Source: Lachnospiraceae bacterium (GTDB lineage Bacteria > Bacillota > Clostridia > Lachnospirales > Lachnospiraceae). From it: 64,000 nt of DNA. Within the stretch, counting starts at the first letter, position 1. Each line of letters begins with the position of its first letter. The stretch is from assembly GCA_022769665.1 (NCBI GenBank), contig JALEIR010000042.1, positions 36,172 through 100,171 on the forward strand, written 5' to 3'. Shown here in pieces: positions 50,563-62,040 of this stretch. A program made the position numbers and the translations under genes. The notes below the pieces were generated by a model. That model was not told where the DNA came from. It saw only the letters and a list, made by a program, of their open reading frames with translations, and did not search any database.

Positions 50563-51009
50563 TCAACAGGTATAATGATACCAAAGCAGCGCAAAGAAAG
50601 CAAGGGTAATGTAAGGCAGAAAGGGCACCGGATGCTTCAAATTTCCATGTTTATCGATATTTCGACACATCCCCTGAATCAACGCCAAAAGACAGAAAGC
50701 CGCTAACATATGAATAAGGTATCCTTTCAGTCCCAACCCGGATGCTGCTTCTGCCGTTGCGCAGACGCTGAATGCATAACTGTCCGCCTTGCCGTACATC
50801 CGGGAAAAGAAAAACAACTGCAGCAACACAAACGCTCCCAACTCTGCAGCTTCTCCCAAGGTAAAATCCTTACTGCCCGTCATCAGAAGAATCCCTGCTG
50901 CCGTGCCCGAAATCCACCAGGTAAAATTATATACTGTACAGGTCCTGCAGTCTGTGATGCAGGCAAACAACAGGCACAGTACTATTATCCCCCATAAAAC
51001 TTCTCTCAT
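50563..51009 (-). CDS. prepilin peptidase (A24 family, TadV/CpaA type)
   Basis: A 148-residue polytopic membrane aspartic protease. The first catalytic Asp is in LFACITDCRTCTVYN near residue 20. The second is in FSRMYGKADSYAFSV near residue 72, where the usual GxGD motif reads GKAD. No N-terminal methylase domain is present, as in Tad-type peptidases. It should cleave the Flp and pseudopilin leaders. It follows the giant surface protein gene with a 4-base overlap and is the last gene of the Tad operon. Confidence 0.82.
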   Translation of the reverse strand: MREVLWGIIVLCLLFACITDCRTCTVYNFTWWISGTAAGILLMTGSKDFTLGEAAELGAFVLLQLFFFSRMYGKADSYAFSVCATAEAASGLGLKGYLIHMLAAFCLLALIQGMCRNIDKHGNLKHPVPFLPYITLAFFALLWYHYTC

Positions 51010-54000
51010 CTCAATCTCGTCCTTAGCTCGCCCAGAACCGTCCCTGCCACTTCAATGGTACTGAGTGACGGCTGCTTTTTCAGCTCCTTATCTCCCTTGT
51101 AGGCCCGCACCGTCACAACATAATCACGGTTCGCCGGCAAATACAGCGGAATCATAAACTGCAGTTTAGATTCCTGACAGTACATCTGCAAGTCCGTATA
51201 ATCGTAGGTTTGGTTCAGTTCCGGGTTTACCGCAGTTAACTCCGCCGGGAATTCGACCTCCACCCTGTCTGCATAACCGTAAGTTGTAATATACAGGATT
51301 CCGCTCTCTCCGCATTTAAATACCGGCAGATGAGGTTCCAGAATACGTTCGATGCGGGTTTCCAGAGCGAATTCCGTCATCTGACAAGAAACCTCCGTCT
51401 CGTTTCCCACGTTGTCCGCAGCATATCCGATCACAGTGAAATTTCCCGTAAAAAGAGGATTTTCCTCCGTGAGCACAAGCTGTACAATTCCTTGTTCCGG
51501 ATAAAAAATCTTCTCACTGAAGTTATCTTGGTTTTTCACTTTTACATAAAATTCATCCACACCGGAAAGAGTATCGTCTGCCGTTACGGTCAGACAGACC
51601 ATTTCCGTGAGCCTGTCAATTACATCTCGGTTCTGCAATATTTCCAGTCCTCTGATTACAGGTCCCTCCCCGTCTCCGATAACAGTAATACCGTTTTGGT
51701 AATCCAGGGTCAAATCCGAATATTGTATCTCCTTTTTTCCGTTCTTCCAACAATCCGCACCGGTTCTCGGAATGATGTTCACCATCAGGCCGTTTGCTTC
51801 TTTTCCCAATGTAAATTTCTGCTCACTGTCCAGATTTCTGCCACGGTCAGAACGTCTTGTAACATAATAGGGATATTGCCCGAGAAAACTTGTCCCTTCC
51901 ACCGAATAAATCAGCTCCTCCGCCCCGGTCTCAGTGTCATTCTCCGGGTTTACCGCTGAAGGGGTATAGATGGTGTTGCGGGCTGTGGCACTGTTCTGCC
52001 CTGATGCCTTTGTCTCATAAATAGTATAATTCAGTTGATAGTCTTCCGTCGGTCTGCCGTCCATGTAGGCTTCATGTTGCAGCAAAAAAGGGGTGATTCC
52101 GTCACACCTTACGTAATATGTGTTCTCCTGCTTAGTCCGATATACATTCTGCCCGATTTCTATCCGAAGCTGTCCGGTATAGAGATTCCAGTTTACACTC
52201 TCCGTGTCCAGACGTATATGTGTGGTACCGCCTATATTTCCCGCAATGTCTACTGCAGCCAAATGTAAATACTGCACATAATCCTGTATTTGTACAATTA
52301 TCTGCCCGGCTGTTGTAAAACTTCCCGATGTGTCAGCTTCCGTATTCTCTTTCCGATCCAGCCGATAATAATACCCCCTGATTCCGGAAACCAGAGTATT
52401 CTTTGTCACGTTAGACTCACACAGCGGAGACGCCGAACCTTTCAGATAGCTCTCTGTCTTATGATAATAAACAGTTCCGTTGTCCTCCGGCTCATCCCAT
52501 GTAATCAGCACTTTGTTTTCACCAAGCGGCCTTTTTGCCACCTTGTCCTCCGCCACAATATCCGGCGCTTCCAAATCCCGGGCCAATATACCCTGCAGAC
52601 TGAGATTTTCCACAAACCCTATCTGTTTCGCCTGCAGCGCTATATATCCGTTTCCTGCCCGGGTCCCGGGCTGAAAGGAATAACCGAGTACTGCGCCTGT
52701 ATTCACATAGCTGCTTCCTCCATATGCAGGCTTGGAAGATAAAACCTGTCCTTCCTCATAGCCGCAGATATAGCTTTCATCCTTCCCGCAAAGGTAATCC
52801 TCCACTGTCGACGTCGTTTTCCCGCAGGTCAGTTCATAGACGTCTTTTGTCAGCGGATGAATGTTGCTTCCTCCGCATTTTCCGCAGGTTTTTGTATTCC
52901 ACATATAGTGTCCGCCCCAATAGCCGCAGTCGCCGCATTGGACCGAGCTATATATGTAGTCTGTATAAGAGTAGGTATAGCAGCTTCCCCCCACTTCAGA
53001 ATGCTTGTGATAAAGGCAACAGCTCTCCACATGGACGTGCCGACAGGTGTCATCATGAAAGTGACAGATTAGCTCACCCGCCATTCCGCCAAGAAAGCCT
53101 CCGCCTCCCCCGGCATTCCCGTCCTCTCCGGCATATCCCGTATGTAACAATGCTGCCGTGCTTCCTCCTTCGCCGCCGTTCCCGCTCTCGGAAGCGCTGC
53201 CGCCTCCTCCCGCCACGGCAAGAACTCCCTGTCTGTCGGAGCTCACAACGGTGCAGCCACCACCGTTTCCGAACATATCTCCCTTTCCTCCACCGTTGAA
53301 ACCGTTTTGTCCTCCTACGGTACAGGAAAGAACCTCGTCCTTCCGAAGCCATACGGTCGCCTCCACACCGCCGCCTTTTCCTCCGGAAAAGCTTCCGTAT
53401 CCGGCTCCCTGGGCACCGGACAGTTTCAACGAATAGACACCGGTATAGGGCACTGTATACTTTTCCGTTCTTCCCACAAATGAAAACGTATTTTTCACAC
53501 TGCGCTCGCTGCCGATATCGTCCACTGTATTGATTCTGCTCCAGCTTTGAAGGTTTCGACTCTGATAAAGGATGTAAGTTTTATTGTTTCCGTCCGCCTG
53601 ATTCCACGACAGGTTCACAGCTCCGACACCGTTGTGGGAAATATAATTGTCCTCTGCTTTCAGTGTCAAATCCACCCATTGGGCATAAAGAGTCAGATTT
53701 TTTGTGGGTGTGATGCGGTCACCGGCTCCCCCTGCAGGGATTTGCAGAGCCGCATCATAATACCAGCCGCCAAAGGAGTATCCTGTTCTCTCCGGTTTCG
53801 GAAGCGTTATACTGTCTGATTCATAACACGCCTTCAGGACATCCACTGTGCCATGGAGGGCTGTAAACTGATACATTCCATCTCTCCAGGTGCCTCCGAA
53901 AGGCTGCACCATACTCCATTCCGTAAAATGTCTTGTTCCGGTTACCGGTGCACAGGCTGTTCCTCCGTTTGTATGGAAGCTTACCCGATATCCTGACGGA

Positions 54001-55073
54001 GGCAGCAAAAGAGAGCCGTTCGGCCTGCAGACTGTGCCGTATTTGCCGTTCACCACCGTATATCCGTCTTTCCCGTCATAGCTTCCCCCATCGGGATTTA
54101 TCTTTAGAGTGCTCTCTGTCAGCTCCCATTGTGCATAAAGTGTTACAACTCCCGTTCCGCTGTTTCCCATACCGTCCCAGTTTTCCGCTGTGAGATTCAG
54201 AATTCGCGCACCGTCTTCAAAAAAAGTACCGCTGCCGTCCGGTTTTGTATTCCAGCCCAGAAAGCGGTAGCCGATACGATTGTAAGCGTTCGGTGTCAGA
54301 CGTGTCACCGGAGTGACCGTCTGTCCCTCATACACGGAAATATCATTATACATATGGATACTGGGAGGTGTATAACCTCCATATTTCATTTCACCACCCT
54401 GAAAGCTATTCCCCGTAGGATTGGGATCATAAACCACCAGATAACGATTATAGGAAATCTCCTTACAGTAATGCTCAGGTTGATATCCCTGTTCCAGATT
54501 GTTGCAGACAGGGCATAAATAATAGTAATCCAATCCATCCTGCACACGGAAATACTCAATGCTTTTCGCAGCCGCAGCACTCATATAAACAAACCTGTTG
54601 TTTATGGCTTCTCCGCAATCTGCACAGTAGGCGGTCCAGCCTGAGTAATGTTTTGAAAAACAGTTTTGTTTTCCAAAGGTGAGTCCATGATAGTCACCCT
54701 CCGGATAACTGTTATGAATACACTGTCCTTCCGCCCACTCCACACGCCAATACGCTATCGGTATATCTCCGGTCCGTTTTGTTTTATAGTAATGCTGCCC
54801 TGTTTTTAAGGAAGCCAGTTTTGATGCTGTATTTAGTTCAACCGTTTCTCCTTCTTTGTAATGTATCCCCGTTCCGCTTGCGTTACCTTTGTCTCCCGCG
54901 TTGGTCGTCCAGGCCCGTCCATCCGGAGCAAAGGTAACATAAGGGCTGCGAGATATGGTTTTCTCCGCTGCCCGCACAGTCTGTACCGGCATCATCAATA
55001 TCAAAATAAGGCTTCCGCCAAATATTCCCGCCAGAAACGCGGTCAAATGAATCATCCGATTACCGACTCTCAA
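51006..55073 (-). CDS. very large Tad-linked surface protein with InlB-type repeats, Gly-rich and Cys-rich regions
   Basis: About 1355 residues from the TTG I prefer (AAGGAGG upstream), or 1379 as in the track. After a TM/signal segment (LTAFLAGIFGGSLILILMM) come an N-terminal Cys-containing region (CADCGEAINN, CPVCNNLEQG), two Listeria-Bacteroides (InlB B) repeats ending VTLYAQWEL and LTLYAQWVD, and a Gly-rich region near 570-700 (VAGGGGSASESGNGGEGGST) like the ALK/LTK-type Gly-rich domain. A Cys/His-rich stretch near 705-830 and Fn3-like and Ig-like C-terminal segments follow. It is encoded inside the Tad operon between lipoprotein and peptidase genes, so it is probably an adhesin or pilus-associated surface protein. 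Confidence 0.78.
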   Translation of the reverse strand: MRVGNRMIHLTAFLAGIFGGSLILILMMPVQTVRAAEKTISRSPYVTFAPDGRAWTTNAGDKGNASGTGIHYKEGETVELNTASKLASLKTGQHYYKTKRTGDIPIAYWRVEWAEGQCIHNSYPEGDYHGLTFGKQNCFSKHYSGWTAYCADCGEAINNRFVYMSAAAAKSIEYFRVQDGLDYYYLCPVCNNLEQGYQPEHYCKEISYNRYLVVYDPNPTGNSFQGGEMKYGGYTPPSIHMYNDISVYEGQTVTPVTRLTPNAYNRIGYRFLGWNTKPDGSGTFFEDGARILNLTAENWDGMGNSGTGVVTLYAQWELTESTLKINPDGGSYDGKDGYTVVNGKYGTVCRPNGSLLLPPSGYRVSFHTNGGTACAPVTGTRHFTEWSMVQPFGGTWRDGMYQFTALHGTVDVLKACYESDSITLPKPERTGYSFGGWYYDAALQIPAGGAGDRITPTKNLTLYAQWVDLTLKAEDNYISHNGVGAVNLSWNQADGNNKTYILYQSRNLQSWSRINTVDDIGSERSVKNTFSFVGRTEKYTVPYTGVYSLKLSGAQGAGYGSFSGGKGGGVEATVWLRKDEVLSCTVGGQNGFNGGGKGDMFGNGGGCTVVSSDRQGVLAVAGGGGSASESGNGGEGGSTAALLHTGYAGEDGNAGGGGGFLGGMAGELICHFHDDTCRHVHVESCCLYHKHSEVGGSCYTYSYTDYIYSSVQCGDCGYWGGHYMWNTKTCGKCGGSNIHPLTKDVYELTCGKTTSTVEDYLCGKDESYICGYEEGQVLSSKPAYGGSSYVNTGAVLGYSFQPGTRAGNGYIALQAKQIGFVENLSLQGILARDLEAPDIVAEDKVAKRPLGENKVLITWDEPEDNGTVYYHKTESYLKGSASPLCESNVTKNTLVSGIRGYYYRLDRKENTEADTSGSFTTAGQIIVQIQDYVQYLHLAAVDIAGNIGGTTHIRLDTESVNWNLYTGQLRIEIGQNVYRTKQENTYYVRCDGITPFLLQHEAYMDGRPTEDYQLNYTIYETKASGQNSATARNTIYTPSAVNPENDTETGAEELIYSVEGTSFLGQYPYYVTRRSDRGRNLDSEQKFTLGKEANGLMVNIIPRTGADCWKNGKKEIQYSDLTLDYQNGITVIGDGEGPVIRGLEILQNRDVIDRLTEMVCLTVTADDTLSGVDEFYVKVKNQDNFSEKIFYPEQGIVQLVLTEENPLFTGNFTVIGYAADNVGNETEVSCQMTEFALETRIERILEPHLPVFKCGESGILYITTYGYADRVEVEFPAELTAVNPELNQTYDYTDLQMYCQESKLQFMIPLYLPANRDYVVTVRAYKGDKELKKQPSLSTIEVAGTVLGELRTRLR

Positions 55074-55104
55074 TCCTCCACCTCCTTCTATATAGATCCC
55101 GGTC

Positions 55105-56001
55105 TCAATCCGGAAGCGGTTTTGAACCGAGGCCATAACTTTCATTCATGATTTCAGCGGATGTCTCCTGTACCGCACCGCAATAGCACCGGCCTTCTGC
55201 CCATTGATGCTCTATATGCTCTCCGCAAAAGCGACAGTTACCGGAGCCGCAGGTTTCCAATACATGTCCGCATGGCTCGACAGTATTTGTAAAAACTTCG
55301 CCGCATTTTAAGCATGTCTGTGTGGTAAAAATTACCGAGGTGCAGTGGGGGCCTCCTTCGCTTACCGGCTCTCCCAGCACATGTCCGGGCTCAGTGTAAT
55401 CACTGTAGGTGTTCAAAATATATCCGCATTTTGCACACATATCGACAATTCGGTATCTTGTCATACAATTTCCATATCCCAGGTCTTCCTCCAAGTGCCA
55501 TAACCACGCATACGTGTGCTCCGTCTTTTCAATACTCATTGTCCTCGTTGCTCCGCATACAGTACAGGTATAGGTCATCAGGCCCTTTTCCGTGCAGTTG
55601 GCTTCCCGTGTCACAGTTCCTTCATCCCAGCTGCAGATATGCACCGAATCCGGTGATGCGGCAGATGTCTGCTCCGATGCAGGGATATGCACAGGTTCCG
55701 GTGATGCGGCAGGTGCCTGCTCCGGTGCAGGGATATGCACAGGTTCCGGTGATGCAATGGGTGCAGGTGTGGGTGCTGTAACAGCTGCCGGTGTTGGGGC
55801 AGGTGAGGCTTCCGTCTCAGAAATCTGCATCGGTTTCGCCGTTGTTGCAGTCTCCACCTCAATCTCCACCGCAGTCTCCACAGACACAGATATATTATCT
55901 TCCGCCCCCGAAACATCCGTAATTCCGCATCCCGCCAATATGGTCATAACCACCGATAAAATAACAATAATTCTCTTCATGTTCCTCACCGCTTTCAACA
56001 T
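55105..56001 (-). CDS. Cys-rich lipoprotein of the Tad operon
   Basis: A 298-residue protein. The lipobox MTILAGC follows a short signal peptide. Residues of about 60-125 are Pro/Ala/Ser-rich with 16-residue repeats (EPVHIPAPEQAPAASP). The remaining 170 residues hold repeated C-x-x-C pairs with aromatic/His spacing: CTVCGAT, CAKCGYIL, CLKCGEVF, CRFCGEH and CYCGA. That pattern suggests several zinc-ribbon-like or disulphide modules outside the cell. Similar C-x-x-C elements occur in the adjacent giant protein. No named family was recognised. It may be an assembly factor or surface partner of the pilus. Confidence 0.75.
   Translation of the reverse strand: MLKAVRNMKRIIVILSVVMTILAGCGITDVSGAEDNISVSVETAVEIEVETATTAKPMQISETEASPAPTPAAVTAPTPAPIASPEPVHIPAPEQAPAASPEPVHIPASEQTSAASPDSVHICSWDEGTVTREANCTEKGLMTYTCTVCGATRTMSIEKTEHTYAWLWHLEEDLGYGNCMTRYRIVDMCAKCGYILNTYSDYTEPGHVLGEPVSEGGPHCTSVIFTTQTCLKCGEVFTNTVEPCGHVLETCGSGNCRFCGEHIEHQWAEGRCYCGAVQETSAEIMNESYGLGSKPLPD
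55635..55755 (-). repeat. 48-bp tandem repeat within the lipoprotein gene
   Basis: A 48-base unit starting GATATGCAC is repeated at 55636, 55684 and 55732; the third copy is partial. It encodes the 16-residue Pro/Ala repeat. Copy number of such repeats can vary by slippage. Confidence 0.8.
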
Positions 56002-56040: not shown

Positions 56041-56712
56041 CTATTTGCATACCTTCACTACTCTCAGAGTACCTGCTGCCAGCTCTGCATAAAAAGGCGC
56101 CACATCGGCTTTGTCCAGATATACATTTATGCGTTGTGCCGCTGCATTGGAATTATCACTCTCAATTCTGTTTCCCGTCTGATCAAAAACCTCCGCAACA
56201 TAAACATTTTCCCAAATCAGTACAGCTTCTTTATCTTCATTCACCCTGTAAACATGTATCCTGTCGCCGGGCCGCACCGTGCCTCCCACAACCTGATACA
56301 AATCATCTGCCTTGAATCCCGCAATCACAGGTTCTTCCATCTGCTCCCAGATTTCGTTCAGGCTCTCAAACATTTCTTCTGTCAGTATGACACCGGGTTC
56401 TATGTCAAATTTTGCAGCAAGCCCCGCAAGCTGTTGCGGACTCCGTAGTGCGCTTGCCGCTATACAGGAAATATCCGTCTCCTGTTCCCGGAAATATACA
56501 CTGTAATCATTCTCCGTAACCAACCTTCCTTTGGGGATTTTTTCTGCCGCTACATATACGGTTCCTTTTTCATACTCTGTCAGCACACTTTTTTCTATCT
56601 GCAACATAACAATAAAAACTGCCACTGCCGCTACCAGTGCGGCAATCGTTCCGCCTGCTTTCCATCTGTCCCCCGAAAAGAGTGATGGCGTTTTTCTTCT
56701 TCTCATCTGCAT
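56041..56712 (-). CDS. Flp pilus assembly protein CpaB/RcpC-like (SAF domain)
   Basis: A 223-residue protein. It has one N-terminal TM segment (TIAALVAAVAVFIVMLQI) and a SAF-type domain (AAEKIPKGRLVTENDYSVYF with IEPGVILTEEMFESL). This is the CpaB arrangement found in all Tad systems, thought to act at the pilus base or envelope. Length is normal for Gram-positive members. It sits between the TadE-like genes and the Cys-rich lipoprotein. Confidence 0.82.
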   Translation of the reverse strand: MQMRRRKTPSLFSGDRWKAGGTIAALVAAVAVFIVMLQIEKSVLTEYEKGTVYVAAEKIPKGRLVTENDYSVYFREQETDISCIAASALRSPQQLAGLAAKFDIEPGVILTEEMFESLNEIWEQMEEPVIAGFKADDLYQVVGGTVRPGDRIHVYRVNEDKEAVLIWENVYVAEVFDQTGNRIESDNSNAAAQRINVYLDKADVAPFYAELAAGTLRVVKVCK

Positions 56713-56729: not shown

Positions 56730-57308
56730 TTATTCACACATTACGATATCAACCAATTTCCCCTTATGCGCATCTGTCTCGATACCGGGAAACCCTTTTA
56801 CACGATAGACTATTTCACTGTAAATTCCGGTGGACTCCACCATCACTCCATTGGGTGCCCTGACGCTTCCCAGCGTTCCCGTACCGCTGTACATCACACC
56901 GTTTTCGTCAAAACTGTAAACTTCCACATTCTCCTCATCGACGTTGTAGACTGTAAAATTGACCATATGTACCGGCCCTGAAATCAAGCTCTGATTGGTG
57001 CATTCCCAGTTAGCATCTAACCCTAGATTTGCTTTCATTGCCGCTATGCAACGCAGACGAGCTGTATACACATCCTCAATCTGAATACGATGAGAAACCC
57101 CATACTCTTCTACATCAATGATTGCAGCCGCCAGATTGGAAGCAGCCAGGGCATCTTCCAAGTATTGTGCCGAACTTCGAAATATTTCCATCTGCAAAAG
57201 CGAGCATAGAAGAATTCCCCAGAAAAGAAAAATCCAGAAGCCGGCAGTCCATCCGATTTGCCCTTTCTCAGTACTTCGCAGTAGACACCCTTTTTTCATC
57301 AATCTCAT
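56730..57308 (-). CDS. TadE-like pseudopilin / Tad-associated membrane protein
   Basis: About 192 residues from the start MRLMKKGCLL, which has GGGGGAAAG upstream; the track start is 16 codons earlier. One hydrophobic segment (WTAGFWIFLFWGILLCSLL) follows a basic N-terminus ending GQIG. The rest is an extracytoplasmic domain. In Tad operons this position holds TadE/TadF minor pseudopilins. Similarity is by context and membrane topology, not by a strong motif. It overlaps the preceding gene by about 40 bases. Confidence 0.62.
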   Translation of the reverse strand: MRLMKKGCLLRSTEKGQIGWTAGFWIFLFWGILLCSLLQMEIFRSSAQYLEDALAASNLAAAIIDVEEYGVSHRIQIEDVYTARLRCIAAMKANLGLDANWECTNQSLISGPVHMVNFTVYNVDEENVEVYSFDENGVMYSGTGTLGSVRAPNGVMVESTGIYSEIVYRVKGFPGIETDAHKGKLVDIVMCE

Positions 57309-57624
57309 AGCTTTCCCCCAGCTTTCCCCTAATCCGAAGCACAATTTCTTCCCCATATCCTACCCATTCCATTGTGGTATTTTCGAGACTGATTTCCGTC
57401 ACACCTGCCGCCTCCAGTTCCCGAACCAAGATAATTCTGTCCTCCTCTGTCAGATACCCGGCTGACTCCATACGCAAAATATATTTCCTTGCAATCTGAT
57501 TGACATCCTCCTTTTTTTCAATGACATGCACACTGTTCATATAAGCTGTCATCAATATCGTCATCAAGAGCATACAGATGCAAATCGCCAGGAAATCTCC
57601 CACATTGCCCGACTCTCTTTTCAT
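57268..57624 (-). CDS. TadE/DUF4320-like pseudopilin
   Basis: The real start is at 57624 (MKRESGNVGDFLAICIC), where ATG overlaps the stop of the Flp gene as ATGA; the track's 157-residue version starts upstream in the Flp coding region. The protein is 118 residues with one membrane segment (LAICICMLLMTILMTAYM) and a domain reading NQIARKYILRMESAGYL and EISLENTTMEWVGYGEEIVL. It resembles the DUF4320 group found with Tad loci. It is probably cleaved and assembled as a minor pilin. Confidence 0.7.
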   Translation of the reverse strand: MKRESGNVGDFLAICICMLLMTILMTAYMNSVHVIEKKEDVNQIARKYILRMESAGYLTEEDRIILVRELEAAGVTEISLENTTMEWVGYGEEIVLRIRGKLGESYEIDEKRVSTAKY

Positions 57625-57857
57625 GCCGACACTCCGGTCAGAATCTGCTGAGCCTTCAGGGTCATTGCATCTACCAGTGTGCGGATAAAAGCCGTCAGAC
57701 TGTCCTTCATCACCACGCACAAAAGCAGCGCAATGATACACAAGCCTACCGTAACCAAAATGCCGTCAATTCCGGGTTCTTTCTTCATCATTTCTCTCCG
57801 TATGGTTCGTCCCACCCGGCTTCCCTTTTCCACAACAACATACCAAGCTTTTTTCAT
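57621..57857 (-). CDS. Flp-type major pilin precursor
   Basis: A 78-residue protein with the Flp pattern. A basic, hydrophilic leader ends KKEPG, and the mature part begins IDGILVTVGLCIIALLLCVV, followed by a short C-terminal helix (TAFIRTLVDAMTLKAQQIL). The glycine before ID is the expected cleavage site for the prepilin peptidase. The mature pilin would be about 48 residues. It is the only Flp gene seen here, directly before the pseudopilins. Confidence 0.78.
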   Translation of the reverse strand: MKKAWYVVVEKGSRVGRTIRREMMKKEPGIDGILVTVGLCIIALLLCVVMKDSLTAFIRTLVDAMTLKAQQILTGVSA

Positions 57858-57875: not shown

Positions 57876-58715
57876 CTAAAACAAAGTTACCGCTCCAAAC
57901 ATATAGCTCACACAAGCATACAGTGCCAGTCCCAAAACCACTGTCAGTACACCCAGCTGGCAGAATGTAATTCTTCTGTCCAATGCTGCCTTTTTCCGTT
58001 CAAGCACCGTCTCCTCCATATCCTTGATTTGTTCTCCGATATCCCGCAAAAGCTCCACCGCCTGTCCCGATTCCAAGGCCTGAAAAATTGTAATACACAA
58101 AGAATCAACATAACGGTTATCAAACTTCCCCTGAAACTTTTCCAACGATTCATAAATATCTGCCTTCATGACAATGTCTCCGGCCAGTTCCAAGAGGGCC
58201 TGTCTCAACCGCCTGTCCTGCACACTTCCATAACACTCCGCCAGTGCATCCGTCATATAAATTCCTGCCTTTATTTGTATTTCCAATGCGTGATACATCA
58301 GCTTTAGCTCCGGTAAAAGCCTTTCATTGTCCCGCTTGTTCATATAGTACACCAGCCACGCCGGCAAAAAGAACAGAAGCAGAAATACCGGCAATCCATA
58401 GCCCGCGCCCCATTTTAATCCGATCCATAATCCTGTCAGCCCCAAAATGAGTCGAAACACCAAAAAGCGGATCGGATCAACCCATCTGCCAAAATGGAAA
58501 GCTGCACCCTTTTTCTCAAGCCAGCGTTTATTTTTCCGGTAATATCCGGTCTCCCGGCTTCCTGCCGTAATCAATCCTTCCATCTCCCTGTAAGCTCTCA
58601 ACAGTCTCACATGCCGGTCTTTATCTTTTCCCAAAAGCTGCAGCAGCAAAAATACCATCAGAGCAGCAAGACAGGATGCACATTTCAGCAAAAGATTTAT
58701 CTGAATTTTTTCCAC
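57876..58715 (-). CDS. tadC: Tad pilus inner-membrane platform protein TadC
   Basis: About 279 residues from the GTG I choose at 58715 (GGAGGGG before it); the track ORF is 14 codons longer and overlaps tadB. The T2SSF domain is seen as LLPELKLMYHALEIQIKAGIYMTDALAE and AALDRRITFCQLGVL. Several membrane segments flank it. With TadB it forms the platform that couples the TadA motor to pilin insertion. Position and order match other Tad operons. Confidence 0.85.
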   Translation of the reverse strand: MEKIQINLLLKCASCLAALMVFLLLQLLGKDKDRHVRLLRAYREMEGLITAGSRETGYYRKNKRWLEKKGAAFHFGRWVDPIRFLVFRLILGLTGLWIGLKWGAGYGLPVFLLLFFLPAWLVYYMNKRDNERLLPELKLMYHALEIQIKAGIYMTDALAECYGSVQDRRLRQALLELAGDIVMKADIYESLEKFQGKFDNRYVDSLCITIFQALESGQAVELLRDIGEQIKDMEETVLERKKAALDRRITFCQLGVLTVVLGLALYACVSYMFGAVTLF

Positions 58716-58723
58716 TACCCCTC

Positions 58724-59650
58724 CTACTCCGCTCTGCCAACGCTTCCCCGAAGCCATACAAAAAGAGCAAACAGAATCACCAACCCGGCTCTGCCCGGCC
58801 AGGTCTCCGCAAGCAGCTGTCGCATTCCTACTCCCGTCAGCTTTTCCACTGTCAGGAGCACCACAAAAGACATCCCAAGAAGTATGGTAAGATTCATGAC
58901 AGCCTCTCGTATCATCCCTTTACGTTCCCCTGAAACCCGAAGGTATTCCCTGAGACTTCTTCTGCTGTTATCCGCAAGGATTGAAAAATCAGCACAATAT
59001 CGAATACTGACCTCCATATTCCGTACAAGCTCCTTAAATTTGGGATGCTCTATCCGTTCTGCCATCAGGCGCAGAGCCATGCTCACATCTCCCGTGGTTG
59101 ACGCTTCATGGCAGCACATATCCAAAACACTTTTCACCGGTTCCTCCATGTACCTTCCAACCTGTTTCAGGATAGCAACTACATCTCCGGAAGTCGCACT
59201 GTAGTTTCCCAGAAAATCCATGAGCTTTGTCAGATTTTCTTCCGTCCGCCTCAGGTTTCTTTCTCTCAGTTTTTTCAGGATATACCATTCCGCCAGACTG
59301 CATGCGCCGGTAACCGCAACGGCCGCCTTTATATCCCCGATTGTCGCACAAACCAAAAACACGGTTGCTCCTCCCACGGCATTCCATGTCACCCACCACT
59401 CTGCCGTCAATCCGGGGAATCGTCTCTTTATTCCGCTGTACTGCAACAGCTGTTCCAGAGAATACCAGGCTGAATGTCTTTCCTGCAGTTCCAGCAATTT
59501 CTGTCTGTCTGCCAAACTTCTCTGTCTGGATGCTGCATCCATTTCCTCCCTGGTCTTTCGCAGGGCTGCTGCCATATGTCCCAAAACTCCCATCTCACGG
59601 AAAAGCAAAAAGAATCCCGACAACAGCAAAATCAACAGTAAAACTTTCAT
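58724..59650 (-). CDS. tadB: Tad pilus inner-membrane platform protein TadB
   Basis: A 308-residue protein. The T2SSF domain is seen in TKLMDFLGNYSATSGDVVAILKQV and ELVRNMEVSIRYCADFSIL. Membrane segments are at the N-terminus, in the middle (VTWNAVGGATVFLVCATIG) and at the C-terminus. It starts 4 bases before the end of tadA, a typical coupled overlap. It pairs with TadC. Confidence 0.85.
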   Translation of the reverse strand: MKVLLLILLLSGFFLLFREMGVLGHMAAALRKTREEMDAASRQRSLADRQKLLELQERHSAWYSLEQLLQYSGIKRRFPGLTAEWWVTWNAVGGATVFLVCATIGDIKAAVAVTGACSLAEWYILKKLRERNLRRTEENLTKLMDFLGNYSATSGDVVAILKQVGRYMEEPVKSVLDMCCHEASTTGDVSMALRLMAERIEHPKFKELVRNMEVSIRYCADFSILADNSRRSLREYLRVSGERKGMIREAVMNLTILLGMSFVVLLTVEKLTGVGMRQLLAETWPGRAGLVILFALFVWLRGSVGRAE

Positions 59651-60852
59651 TCTTCTACCCTCCCAAAAATCTTTTCGTATATCAGGTTTTTGTTTCTGTC
59701 ATCCCACCCTTTGCACTCAAAAATCTCTTTTACCCTGTAATGCTCCATAAAAACCAAGGTCTTAAAGCAATCCAGCATTTTCATCAGCTCACTCCTGGAA
59801 TAGCCGGTTTTCCCCATACAATAATCCACCAGCTTATCCGGTGCCCTGTCTGCGGAGGGAGCATGAATGGTTGCGGCACACAGTTGTCCCGTGTAAGCGG
59901 CATTCAGCAGATACACAGCCTCCGCCCCCTTAATCTCTCCCACAATGAAAAAATCCACATCCATGGTCAGCCCCGCTATGCTGATATGTTCCAGGTCATA
60001 ACTGATTTGCTGTTCTCCCGTTCCCGGAAGAGAATGCAAAAACATCATATCCGGATGGCACCGCGTAGTCAGCTCATCCGCCTGCTGAGCCACCAACACC
60101 GCACAATCGTCCGGAAGTGTCTCTTTCAGTGCATTCAAGAGAGTCGTTTTCCCTGAAGAATTCCCCCCACAAATCAATGTGGAATGTTCTCTGAAACGAC
60201 TGATTAAAAGTTCTGCCGTCTCCCGGGTCAACATACCCTGTCCAATCAATTCCTTCATTTGCGGGAAAAATCTGGGGACTTTTCTGATACACAGATAGGG
60301 TTCATTACTCGTATTCAGCAGAGGCATAGATAATGTGAAACGTAAAATGAAATCGGGATGGCTCTCATAATCCGTAAATCTTTGAATTGCATTCAGATTA
60401 GATATGTTGACTTGATTCTTTGTGGCAATGTAATCGATAAACTGTCTGTATTCCCTGCTTGAAGAAAAGGCTACCTCCGCAGGCATACGCCTCCCCCTCT
60501 TTTTAATTCGGATATTGTCGTATCCAAGCACCCTGATATCCGAAATTTCCTTGTCGTCAATTAAGCCGGAGAGCCTGGAATAGCCGAAAATGTACTGTTC
60601 AAACTCCTTGAGAAGCTCTGCATCCTCCTGCTTTGACTTGTGATAATAGGTTTCTATGTGCAGTAAAGCTTCTTTTAAGAAAGCCTCTTTTGACATCAAA
60701 CCCTTTTTCATCTGCATCAGAGACTGCTGCTTTTGCAGTGTGTATTCTTCCACCAGCTGCTGCAAAAGTTCCTCCGATGCATCCTGTTCGGTATGAATAC
60801 TTTTTCCCCCTTTCACCGCAATCCAAAAATACCGTGCACTGTACTTTCTCAC
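59647..60852 (-). CDS. tadA: Tad pilus ATPase TadA/CpaF
   Basis: A 401-residue cytosolic ATPase. Walker A is ICGGNSSGKTTLLNAL near residue 225, the Asp box/Walker B region is MDVDFFIVGEIKGAEA, and a His box is found in QLCAATIHAPSAD. The N-terminal domain has LIDDKEISDIRVLGYDNI. It powers Flp pilus assembly. The start is GTG with no clear ribosome-binding site. No TadZ/CpaE gene precedes it in this window. It is the first gene of the operon, about 90 bases downstream of the promoter. Confidence 0.92.
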   Translation of the reverse strand: MRKYSARYFWIAVKGGKSIHTEQDASEELLQQLVEEYTLQKQQSLMQMKKGLMSKEAFLKEALLHIETYYHKSKQEDAELLKEFEQYIFGYSRLSGLIDDKEISDIRVLGYDNIRIKKRGRRMPAEVAFSSSREYRQFIDYIATKNQVNISNLNAIQRFTDYESHPDFILRFTLSMPLLNTSNEPYLCIRKVPRFFPQMKELIGQGMLTRETAELLISRFREHSTLICGGNSSGKTTLLNALKETLPDDCAVLVAQQADELTTRCHPDMMFLHSLPGTGEQQISYDLEHISIAGLTMDVDFFIVGEIKGAEAVYLLNAAYTGQLCAATIHAPSADRAPDKLVDYCMGKTGYSRSELMKMLDCFKTLVFMEHYRVKEIFECKGWDDRNKNLIYEKIFGRVEE

Positions 60853-60994: not shown

Positions 60995-61023
60995 TTGTGA
61001 TTTTCCCCTGAAAATGATATAAT
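60995..61023 (+). promoter_or_regulatory. predicted promoter of the 37-residue small protein
   Basis: TTGTGA and the consensus TATAAT separated by 17 bases. It lies back to back with the Tad promoter, 17 bases apart. Confidence 0.6.
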
Positions 61024-61075
61024 ATCCAAGTGTAAAACCTTACGAAAGCAACATTTGCAGAAAAGAGGTATTCCT

Positions 61076-61189
61076 ATGTTCATTCTATTGGCAGGCGGCC
61101 TGTTGGTTATTGTTATTGCCGTTGTTGTAGCGGTAGTAACCGCTATTACTTCAGCGGTTGCGGCAGAAACAGACAGTAACGACGAATAA
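61076..61189 (+). CDS. small membrane protein, 37 residues
   Basis: Not in the ORF track. It reads MFILLAGGLLVIVIAVVVAV and continues with an Ala/Val/Thr-rich segment and an acidic tail (ETDSNDE). AAAGAGG lies 7 bases before the ATG, and a consensus promoter precedes it. The single hydrophobic stretch covers most of the protein, so it should be a membrane peptide. The stop codon is next to the end of the group II intron remnant. No family was recognised. It is divergent from the Tad operon. Confidence 0.55.
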   Translation: MFILLAGGLLVIVIAVVVAVVTAITSAVAAETDSNDE

Positions 61190-61335
61190 TCGAGTAGGAG
61201 AGATTTCCTTCATTGAAGAAATTTCGACCTCTCACACCACCGTGCATACCGTCCGGTACACGGCGGTTCAATCAACTTAACAAGTAACACACCTTTCGGT
61301 GTAGTAAACTAACATTGAGACTAATCCGAACGAGG
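61190..61335 (-). mobile_element. 3' end of a degenerate group II intron
   Basis: Read on the minus strand, this is ACACCGAAAGGTGT (a GNRA-capped hairpin), then GTTAAGTTGATTGAACCGCC, then a domain V hairpin. In it, ACCGCCGTG pairs with CACGGTGGT, a TG bulge follows, and an inner TACC/GGTA helix is capped by GGAC. Next comes GTGAGAGGTC and a domain VI-like helix ending CTCTCCTAC. This is the usual end of bacterial group II introns next to LtrA-type reverse transcriptase genes. The reverse transcriptase is absent, so the intron is a remnant. Its 5' limit is unclear; the hairpin around 61316-61345 and sequence up to about 61420 may belong to it. Confidence 0.72.
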
Positions 61336-61543
61336 TTAGTCTCTCATTGCTTATTGCTACATGAACGTCTCGGCATCATCTCATCCTCATGATCTTTCCT
61401 ATTGGCCTCATCGCCGAATGCTAATGTTCTGTTTTCTGGCACACAAATAATATTTATATCATGCCTTCAAAACTCCCTAAAAATACTGGTTTTTCGTCAC
61501 TTTCTAATGAACAATATCCCGGTCTATAATATTGTACACACAT
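61336..61543. other. AT-rich stretch without recognisable genes
   Basis: It contains a hairpin (GAGACTAA with TTAGTCTC) near 61317-61344 at its edge, and otherwise no convincing ORF or known motif. It is probably the worn interior of the group II intron or flanking sequence. The 88-residue track ORF on the plus strand has no ribosome-binding site and looks spurious. Confidence 0.4.
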
Positions 61544-61690
61544 TCAAAACCTCAAAATTGCTGCCATCATATCAATGCTCTCAAGCAGGACAGTTCTATC
61601 CGGTACCATCTTTTTTCGTATATTCCGAACAAGATTCTTCATTAAAATACACACACGTGCCAGTTTAATTCCACCCGCAGTAGAGCCTAA
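61544..61690 (-). pseudogene. remnant of a TrkH-family potassium transporter, fused to the TPR gene
   Basis: A frame that is not the TPR frame reads GSTAGGIKLARVCILMKNL and RKKMVPDRTVLLESIDMM before TGA. GSTAGGIK is the hallmark of the last pore loop of TrkH/KtrB potassium-uptake proteins. Only about 48 residues remain, without start or upstream domains. Its 5' end overlaps the end of the TPR ORF, so a deletion appears to have joined the two genes out of frame. Confidence 0.66.
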
Positions 61691-61916
61691 TGTTATACCG
61701 TGCAGGAACATAAGTAGGATCTAGTGCATAAGCAGCACGAAAATGCTTCATGGCAAGTACATGGTTGGATTCCTTCTCCAATAAAATCCCCATCAAATTA
61801 TGCGGAATTGCACAATGAGGATTTTCTGCCATAGCTGTTTCTATTTCTTTCTCACATTGTTCAAATTTTCTTTGTATCATCAATTGTCTACATCGTTCTT
61901 CCAATGTATTACTCAT
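61665..61916 (-). pseudogene. TPR-repeat protein with 3' end replaced by deletion
   Basis: An 83-residue ORF with an intact start (AAGGAGG upstream) and two TPR-like helix pairs (IPHNLMGILLEKESNHV and HFRAAYALDPTYVPARY). The last residues, IRLYCGWN, are not TPR-like and come from trkH sequence read in the wrong frame. A short TPR protein following a CorA gene is common in Lachnospiraceae ion-transport loci; I recall this as a general arrangement only. It could still be translated as a shortened protein. Confidence 0.7.
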
Positions 61917-62040
61917 TTAACATTCCTCCTTTGCTTTAGCTGTATTATAATTTGTTCCTTGTCAGAATAGTGTGGGAATTGTTTCGAGCGTTGTGAGAAT
62001 TCTGTGAGCATGATAACCATGTGTAAAAATGATGTGAAAG

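What the first reader, a model, noticed from the sequence alone, without database searches (positions are those of the whole stretch)
51006..56001. Giant InlB-repeat/Gly-rich/Cys-rich protein and a Cys-rich lipoprotein inside a Tad pilus operon
Seen: two genes of about 4.1 kb and 0.9 kb sit between cpaB and the prepilin peptidase, co-directional and nearly contiguous. Both carry repeated C-x-x-C elements outside the membrane, and one carries InlB B-repeats and an ALK-like Gly-rich region. Most described Tad operons have no such pair. I infer that they may form a pilus-associated adhesin complex or a tip/anchor structure. Disulphide or metal-held modules on the surface of an anaerobe would be unusual in themselves.
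Basis: partly seen in the sequence, partly recalled or inferred. Interest (0 to 1): 0.66.

Follow-up and report, generated by a model that had tools for sequence, protein, structure and literature searches.

The report
Swappable surface protein of Tad pili
A gut-bacterium pilus operon encodes a giant secreted protein whose tail end is nearly unchanged across species while its front end is swapped (adhesin-like, protease or other modules), suggesting that the pilus machinery carries an exchangeable surface tool; the Cys-rich lipoprotein beside it is only an optional extra.

Summary
The genes are real: TadA-TadB-TadC-Flp-TadE-TadF-CpaB, lipoprotein, giant protein, A24 prepilin peptidase, all on the minus strand (Acetatifactor-type Lachnospiraceae). 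The "pair" is not the unit. The lipoprotein occurs in about 15 of 64 comparable loci. The giant protein is close to universal: 64 of 65 Tad loci readable past cpaB encode it. Its constant part is an undescribed C-terminal module, a predicted Ig-like domain plus a flexible helix ending (V/I)LDELRTRLR-stop. Among 48 good genomes of the genus, 41 have both this module and TadA and 7 have neither. Genomes with two or three Tad loci have one copy per locus (7 of 7). The tail is conserved as protein, not as a ribosome-binding site of the next gene. The front end is swapped: InlB repeats with a conserved 7-Cys domain and Gly-rich region (here), vWA, GBS_Bsp-like/DUF4214, Ig repeats, or a subtilase with an apparent complete triad. 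Most copies look Sec-secreted; none shows pilin or sortase signals. Best explanation: a non-pilin adhesin/effector of the Tad pilus, docked by its C-terminal module, probably at the tip. The Tad link is shown by genome comparison; docking and tip position are inferred.

The parts
51006..55073 (-). Giant modular secreted protein (ORF 51006-55145; probable TTG start at 55073): signal peptide, 7-Cys domain, InlB B-repeats, FN3-like and Gly-rich/Cys regions, tandem Ig-like domains, C-terminal module
51009..51374 (-). C-terminal module CT (res ~1258-1379): Ig-like domain plus flexible helix ending TVLGELRTRLR-stop; the constant, Tad-linked part of the family
   Evidence: alignments A1/A2/A5; co-occurrence; AF2 pLDDT 91.7 for res 985-1379
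54426..54962 (-). N-terminal 7-Cys domain (res ~62-240), two CxxC plus conserved HxC; no match in PDB
   Evidence: conservation; AF2 model; Foldseek
53676..54323 (-). InlB-type (Flg_new / List_Bact_rpt) repeats, res ~275-490
   Evidence: Pfam and NCBIfam
52611..53498 (-). Gly-rich, ALK-like region with a poorly conserved Cys/His-rich insert (res ~550-845); missing in short family members of 566-690 aa
55105..56001 (-). Accessory Cys-rich lipoprotein (lipobox LAGC, Pro-rich linker, four CxxC); optional
50563..51009 (-). A24-type prepilin peptidase, short; both catalytic Asp (D20 and G73-x-x-D76) conserved in 65 sequences; start overlaps the giant's stop (ATGA)
56041..56712 (-). CpaB/RcpC-like (SAF domain)
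56730..57356 (-). TadF-like minor pilin
57268..57624 (-). TadE-like minor pilin (listed GTG start at 57741 is spurious)
57621..57857 (-). Flp-type major prepilin, 78 aa (conserved GIDGILVTVGLCIIALLL)
57876..58757 (-). TadC
   Evidence: T2SSF
58724..59650 (-). TadB
   Evidence: T2SSF
59647..60852 (-). TadA ATPase
   Evidence: T2SSE 9.7e-14 and TIGR03819 2.3e-25

Best explanation
The giant protein is the surface-exposed, exchangeable working part of this monoderm Tad pilus. It is exported by Sec, cleaved by signal peptidase, and held by its C-terminal Ig-like domain and amphipathic, basic C-terminal helix (VLDELRTRLR) to the Tad apparatus, most likely to the TadE/TadF minor-pilin complex at the pilus tip; the variable N-terminal part (here a conserved Cys-rich domain, InlB repeats and Gly-rich modules) binds the target. 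Shown here: co-occurrence and linkage with Tad genes, constancy of the C-terminal module and tail, swapping of N-terminal modules, absence of pilin or sortase signals. Inferred: that the C-terminal module is the docking part, that the partner is TadE/TadF, that the site is the tip, and that this version is an adhesin. Rough odds: functional part of the Tad system 0.9; docked by the C-terminal module 0.7; at the tip rather than along the fibre or at the base 0.5.
For: Genomic linkage: 64 of 65 TadA-centred loci readable past cpaB carry it directly downstream of cpaB (or after an accessory gene) and, where readable, before the A24 gene; all 64 also have TadABC, Flp, TadE, TadF, CpaB and A24. Co-occurrence: 48 good genomes of the genus, 41 both / 7 neither (p about 1.4e-8 if genomes were independent); one genome per genus in the family, 10 shared of 11 CT and 12 TadA genomes among 299 (p about 5e-16). 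Paralogous Tad loci: 7 of 7 CT copies in G642, G645 and G662 lie in their own Tad locus. Tail conserved at protein level: first Arg of RTRLR uses CGN codons in 51 of 64 genes, start of the next gene lies from -57 to more than 100 bases away, some members carry extra residues. Module swapping on the same C-terminus: vWA with a DVSGS MIDAS-like motif (G170), ALK_LTK_GRD with InlB (G116), GBS_Bsp-like + DUF4214 (G110), Big domains (G270), subtilase with D70/H103/S241 (G662). Precedent that Tad tips carry vWA or variable distal domains: CpaL in Caulobacter (PMC12607857), KilN in Myxococcus (PMC12075869).
Against: No experiment. No structure of a complex could be computed; a mirror-tree test gave no preference for TadE or TadF over other Tad proteins (partial r about 0). 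Known Tad tip proteins are pilins, and this one is not. G156 and G255 have Tad and a large secreted protein near the place but lack the full C-terminal domain (G156 keeps only LIRRRLR), and L151 lacks the gene, so the module is not strictly required. G221 has the C-terminus at a contig end but no TadA of this clade. In G042 the protein is encoded away from the Tad genes. The subtilase versions look membrane-anchored at the N-terminus, which fits a tip poorly.
Confidence: 0.55

Rival explanations
1. Cell-surface anchor at the pilus base: the C-terminal module holds the protein to the cell-envelope side of the machine (CpaB, wall or membrane), where it acts as collar, wall-opening part or anchor rather than at the tip.
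For: Nearly always next to cpaB; subtilase versions keep an N-terminal hydrophobic anchor, and one of them neighbours a choline-binding-repeat protein; a basic amphipathic tail could bind membrane or wall polymers.
Against: Large modular N-termini with vWA, InlB and GRD modules are typical of exposed ligand-binding parts; the secretion signal in most members looks cleavable.
Confidence: 0.25
2. Secretion substrate: the Tad machine works like a type II secretion pseudopilus and the C-terminal module is the export signal for diverse secreted proteins.
For: Constant C-terminus with variable cargo including a subtilase; one cargo per machine.
Against: In a monoderm the Sec route already delivers the protein outside; one cargo gene per locus, no dispersed cargo genes except G042 and the unresolved G221.
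Confidence: 0.12
3. The conserved RTRLR ending is a by-product of a ribosome-binding site or overlap with the next gene.
For: In the window LRT is encoded CTAAGGACG and the stop overlaps the A24 start (ATGA); the second Arg favours AGA/AGG (50 of 64).
Against: Codons of the first Arg are CGN in 51 of 64; distances to the next gene vary; tails with extra residues and a locus with another downstream gene keep the motif.
Confidence: 0.02
4. Operon hitch-hiker: an ordinary surface adhesin in the operon with no physical tie to the pilus.
For: InlB-repeat proteins without the C-terminal module are common in the family.
Against: Strict co-occurrence, one copy per Tad locus, and a constant C-terminus not found on other InlB-repeat proteins.
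Confidence: 0.06

Closest known systems
TadG / CpaL / KilN large minor pilins at Tad tips (PMC12607857, PMC12075869)
   Same: Encoded with TadE- and TadF-like minor pilins; variable distal domain, sometimes vWA; thought to sit at the tip and recognise targets.
   Different: Those are pilins with prepilin N-termini; this protein has an ordinary signal peptide and its constant part is the C-terminus.
PilY1/PilC-type non-pilin tip proteins of type IVa pili (own knowledge; PilY1 also discussed in PMC12607857)
   Same: Large secreted non-pilin with a constant C-terminal part and a variable, sometimes vWA, N-terminal part.
   Different: The C-terminal beta-propeller of that family is absent; here an Ig-like domain with a basic tail helix; Tad rather than T4aP.
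InlB B-repeat (Flg_new, PF09479) surface proteins
   Same: Carries such repeats.
   Different: Repeats are absent from some family members (G170, G110, G270); they do not define it.
Sortase-anchored pilus tip adhesins (GBS104, SpaC)
   Same: Modular, vWA and Ig modules; the G170 member has a weak, sub-threshold similarity to the GBS104 Ig domain (E 0.02).
   Different: No LPXTG at the C-terminus; no sign of sortase involvement.

Membership tests
Tad (type IVc) pilus operon | TadA ATPase, TadB and TadC platform, Flp pilin, TadE/TadF, CpaB, A24 peptidase | tested here: met
   a secretin is not expected in a monoderm and was not searched separately
A24 prepilin peptidase | Two catalytic Asp, second in a GxxD-type motif | tested here: met
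   D20 and G73..D76 conserved in 65 sequences; Pfam score below the curated cut-off (E 0.005)
Tad large minor pilin (TadG/CpaL/KilN) | Prepilin leader and alpha1 pilin helix | tested here: not met
   Sec-type signal peptides, no prepilin leader seen on reading the N-termini of the family; judged by eye
PilY1/PilC | C-terminal beta-propeller of the PilC family | tested here: not met
   No Pfam hit; predicted fold is Ig-like
InlB B-repeat protein | PF09479 repeats above cut-off | tested here: met
   61.2 bits against 27
ALK/LTK glycine-rich domain (PF12810) | Profile hit above cut-off | tested here: not met
   No hit in window protein; met in relative G116, 2e-26
Sortase-anchored surface protein | LPXTG plus hydrophobic C-terminus | tested here: not met
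   None of 64 members
Lipoprotein (55105-56001) | Lipobox after signal peptide | tested here: met
   ILAGC near residues 21-25
Zinc-binding domain | Bound Zn at the Cys clusters | not testable with these tools
   Only conservation of seven Cys and a His shown

The most novel reading that the evidence does not exclude
Monoderm Tad pili carry a one-per-machine, non-pilin, polymorphic tip: a near-universal C-terminal docking module (Ig-like domain plus LRTRLR tail) onto which evolution swaps adhesins, vWA domains or an active subtilisin-like protease, making the Tad pilus a general display and delivery device in gut Lachnospiraceae.
Probability: 0.4. Interest if true: 0.78.

Novelty: new variant of a known kind. 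Interest (0 to 1): 0.6.

Why it matters
What sits on Tad pili of Gram-positive gut bacteria is essentially unknown. A short constant C-terminal module that marks the exposed partner would let anyone find the working end of these pili in genomes, test docking with a defined ten-residue tail, and ask what each variant (adhesin, vWA, protease) does in the gut. It would also show a non-pilin solution in the Tad branch, parallel to the pilin-based adaptable tips of Myxococcus.

Tried and rejected
SD-overlap origin of the C-terminal motif (rejected). Giant plus lipoprotein as an obligate pair (rejected). Mirror-tree search for the docking partner (no signal). PDB sequence searches of both conserved ends (no relatives except weak InlB-type repeats). 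Foldseek: C-terminal half gives only generic tandem Ig-like matches; N-terminal Cys domain no match. The search for related loci with the C-terminal alignment could not run (no dense conserved stretch), so the one genome-contig scan used TadA. C-terminal region not found in phages or plasmids, nor outside Lachnospiraceae in a class-wide sample. Literature searches found no description of this family; the library lacks most subscription papers.

Full report
Observation. The two genes exist as described on the minus strand, within an operon TadA-TadB-TadC-Flp-TadE-TadF-CpaB-lipoprotein-giant-A24 peptidase-GT2. The listed ATG start of the giant overlaps the lipoprotein gene, but a perfect AGGAGG seven bases before TTG 55073 points to that start. 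InlB-type repeats are certain (PF09479, 1e-16); the ALK-like label is a resemblance in the window protein (no hit) but a real hit in the relative G116 (2e-26). No family model covers the N-terminal Cys-rich part or the C-terminal part.

What defines the protein. Searching one genome per genus of the family with the whole protein returned many InlB-repeat proteins, but only a handful aligned at both ends. Fetching their surroundings showed that nearly all of these lie in Tad loci, mostly between cpaB and an A24-type gene, and that their C-termini are alike while the middle differs: 480 aa in G198, 1603 aa in G116 (G170 is cut by contig ends). The C-terminal ~120 residues end in (V/I)LDELRTRLR/IR. 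A profile of this module found 11 of 299 genomes; TadA of this clade (E below 1e-70) was in 12; 10 are shared. Exceptions: G221 (truncated at a contig end, no such TadA), G156 (giant present, only the tail LIRRRLR kept) and G255 (large secreted protein downstream of the A24-like gene, without the module). In G042 the module protein is encoded away from its Tad locus, which lacks one in place.

Within the genus (Acetatifactor in many of the record titles; taxonomy) 74 of 101 genomes have the module and 77 have TadA. Among the 48 good genomes 41 have both and 7 neither, because every genome with one but not the other (G577, G578, G590, G594, G600, G643, G663) is below 90% complete. Three genomes hold two or three module genes; all seven copies lie in separate Tad loci.

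A TadA-centred scan of named genomes gave 80 loci. 64 contain the module protein; 15 are cut before its end; one (L151) is a true absence with cpaB followed directly by the A24 gene. All 64 also have TadA, B, C, Flp, TadE, TadF, CpaB and A24. About 15 of the 64 have a Cys-rich small protein between cpaB and the giant (14 counted, plus L100). The lipoprotein is therefore accessory.

Is the C-terminal motif real? In the window the codons of LRT contain AGGA and the stop overlaps the next start, so a ribosome-binding site could fake conservation. Across 64 genes the first Arg is CGN in 51, the next gene starts from -57 to more than 100 bases away, and several members have extra residues after the motif. 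The second Arg does favour AGA/AGG (50 of 64), so a minor DNA-level contribution cannot be excluded there. The motif is kept as protein.

Structure. AlphaFold2 of residues 985-1379 with 45 sequences: pLDDT 91.7, tandem Ig-like beta-sandwiches, then a helix over the last ten residues with low confidence (55-69), as might be expected of a tail that folds on a partner. Foldseek finds only generic Ig-like proteins. Residues 62-500: pLDDT 93.3; only the InlB-repeat part has PDB relatives, so the Cys domain is without a known structure. Seven Cys (142, 162, 174, 177, 211, 214, 227) are Cys in 58-70 of 73 members, and H225 is also conserved. CADCG and CPxC resemble zinc knuckles; this is a lead, not a test.

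Swapped front ends. With the same C-terminus the family carries vWA with a MIDAS-like DVSGS (G170), GBS_Bsp-like plus DUF4214 (G110), Big domains (G270), ALK_LTK_GRD and InlB (G116), and a subtilase with apparent D/H/S triad in all three Tad loci of G662. Short members of 566-690 aa lack the Gly-rich middle. None has a C-terminal LPXTG; most start with what looks like a cleavable signal peptide; no pilin leader was seen.

Mechanism. Tad tips in other bacteria are minor-pilin complexes with a variable distal domain: KilL/M/N in Myxococcus (PMC12075869) and CpaJ/K/L with a vWA domain in Caulobacter (PMC12607857). The present operon has small TadE and TadF and no large pilin; the giant protein is the natural candidate for the missing distal part, held non-covalently through its C-terminus. 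That step is inference. A mirror-tree test found no specific partner, and no complex could be modelled here. Base anchor and secretion substrate remain open as rivals.

Novelty. Tad systems in Clostridia are known from surveys (PMC6668835). I found no description of this protein family or module in the searchable literature, no family model, no occurrence in phage or plasmid collections and none outside Lachnospiraceae in the class sample. I rate it a new variant of a known kind: a Tad pilus with a non-pilin, module-swapping surface partner. Caveats: relatedness makes the p-values too small, most genomes are metagenome assemblies, and all functional statements are untested.

Noticed in passing
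L178:5353-9897, L179:5162-9781, L180:6024-10079 (G662); L140:16639-20694: Tad-linked C-terminal module fused to a subtilase domain with apparent D/H/S triad; three paralogous Tad loci in one genome, each with its own copy.
   Followed up: partly
L178:2871-4637, L179:2808-4574, L180:4505-5863: In the subtilase-type loci a 452-588 aa protein lies between cpaB and the giant, in the slot of the lipoprotein; the L178 copy has choline-binding repeats (Pfam 9e-14).
   Followed up: no
57621-57857: Flp prepilin of this clade has an almost invariant GIDGILVTVGLCIIALLLCVVMKDSL without the usual Glu at +5; TadE and TadF show a similar G-x-x-G near the leader.
   Followed up: partly
L058:4543-8568 (G042): Module protein encoded away from the Tad locus, next to another large InlB-repeat-like protein; the genome's Tad locus lacks one in place.
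   Followed up: partly
L151:185-2467: The only fully readable locus without the giant has a 760-aa repetitive, beta-helix-like protein just upstream of tadA.
   Followed up: no
61000-61920: Upstream of tadA lie short, apparently degenerate ORFs, including an 83-aa TPR fragment similar to PilW-type proteins.
   Followed up: no
L056:3646-7335 (G021): 1229-aa family member with tandem beta-helix-like repeats and no Pfam hit, ending ITSRIRTRIR.
   Followed up: no
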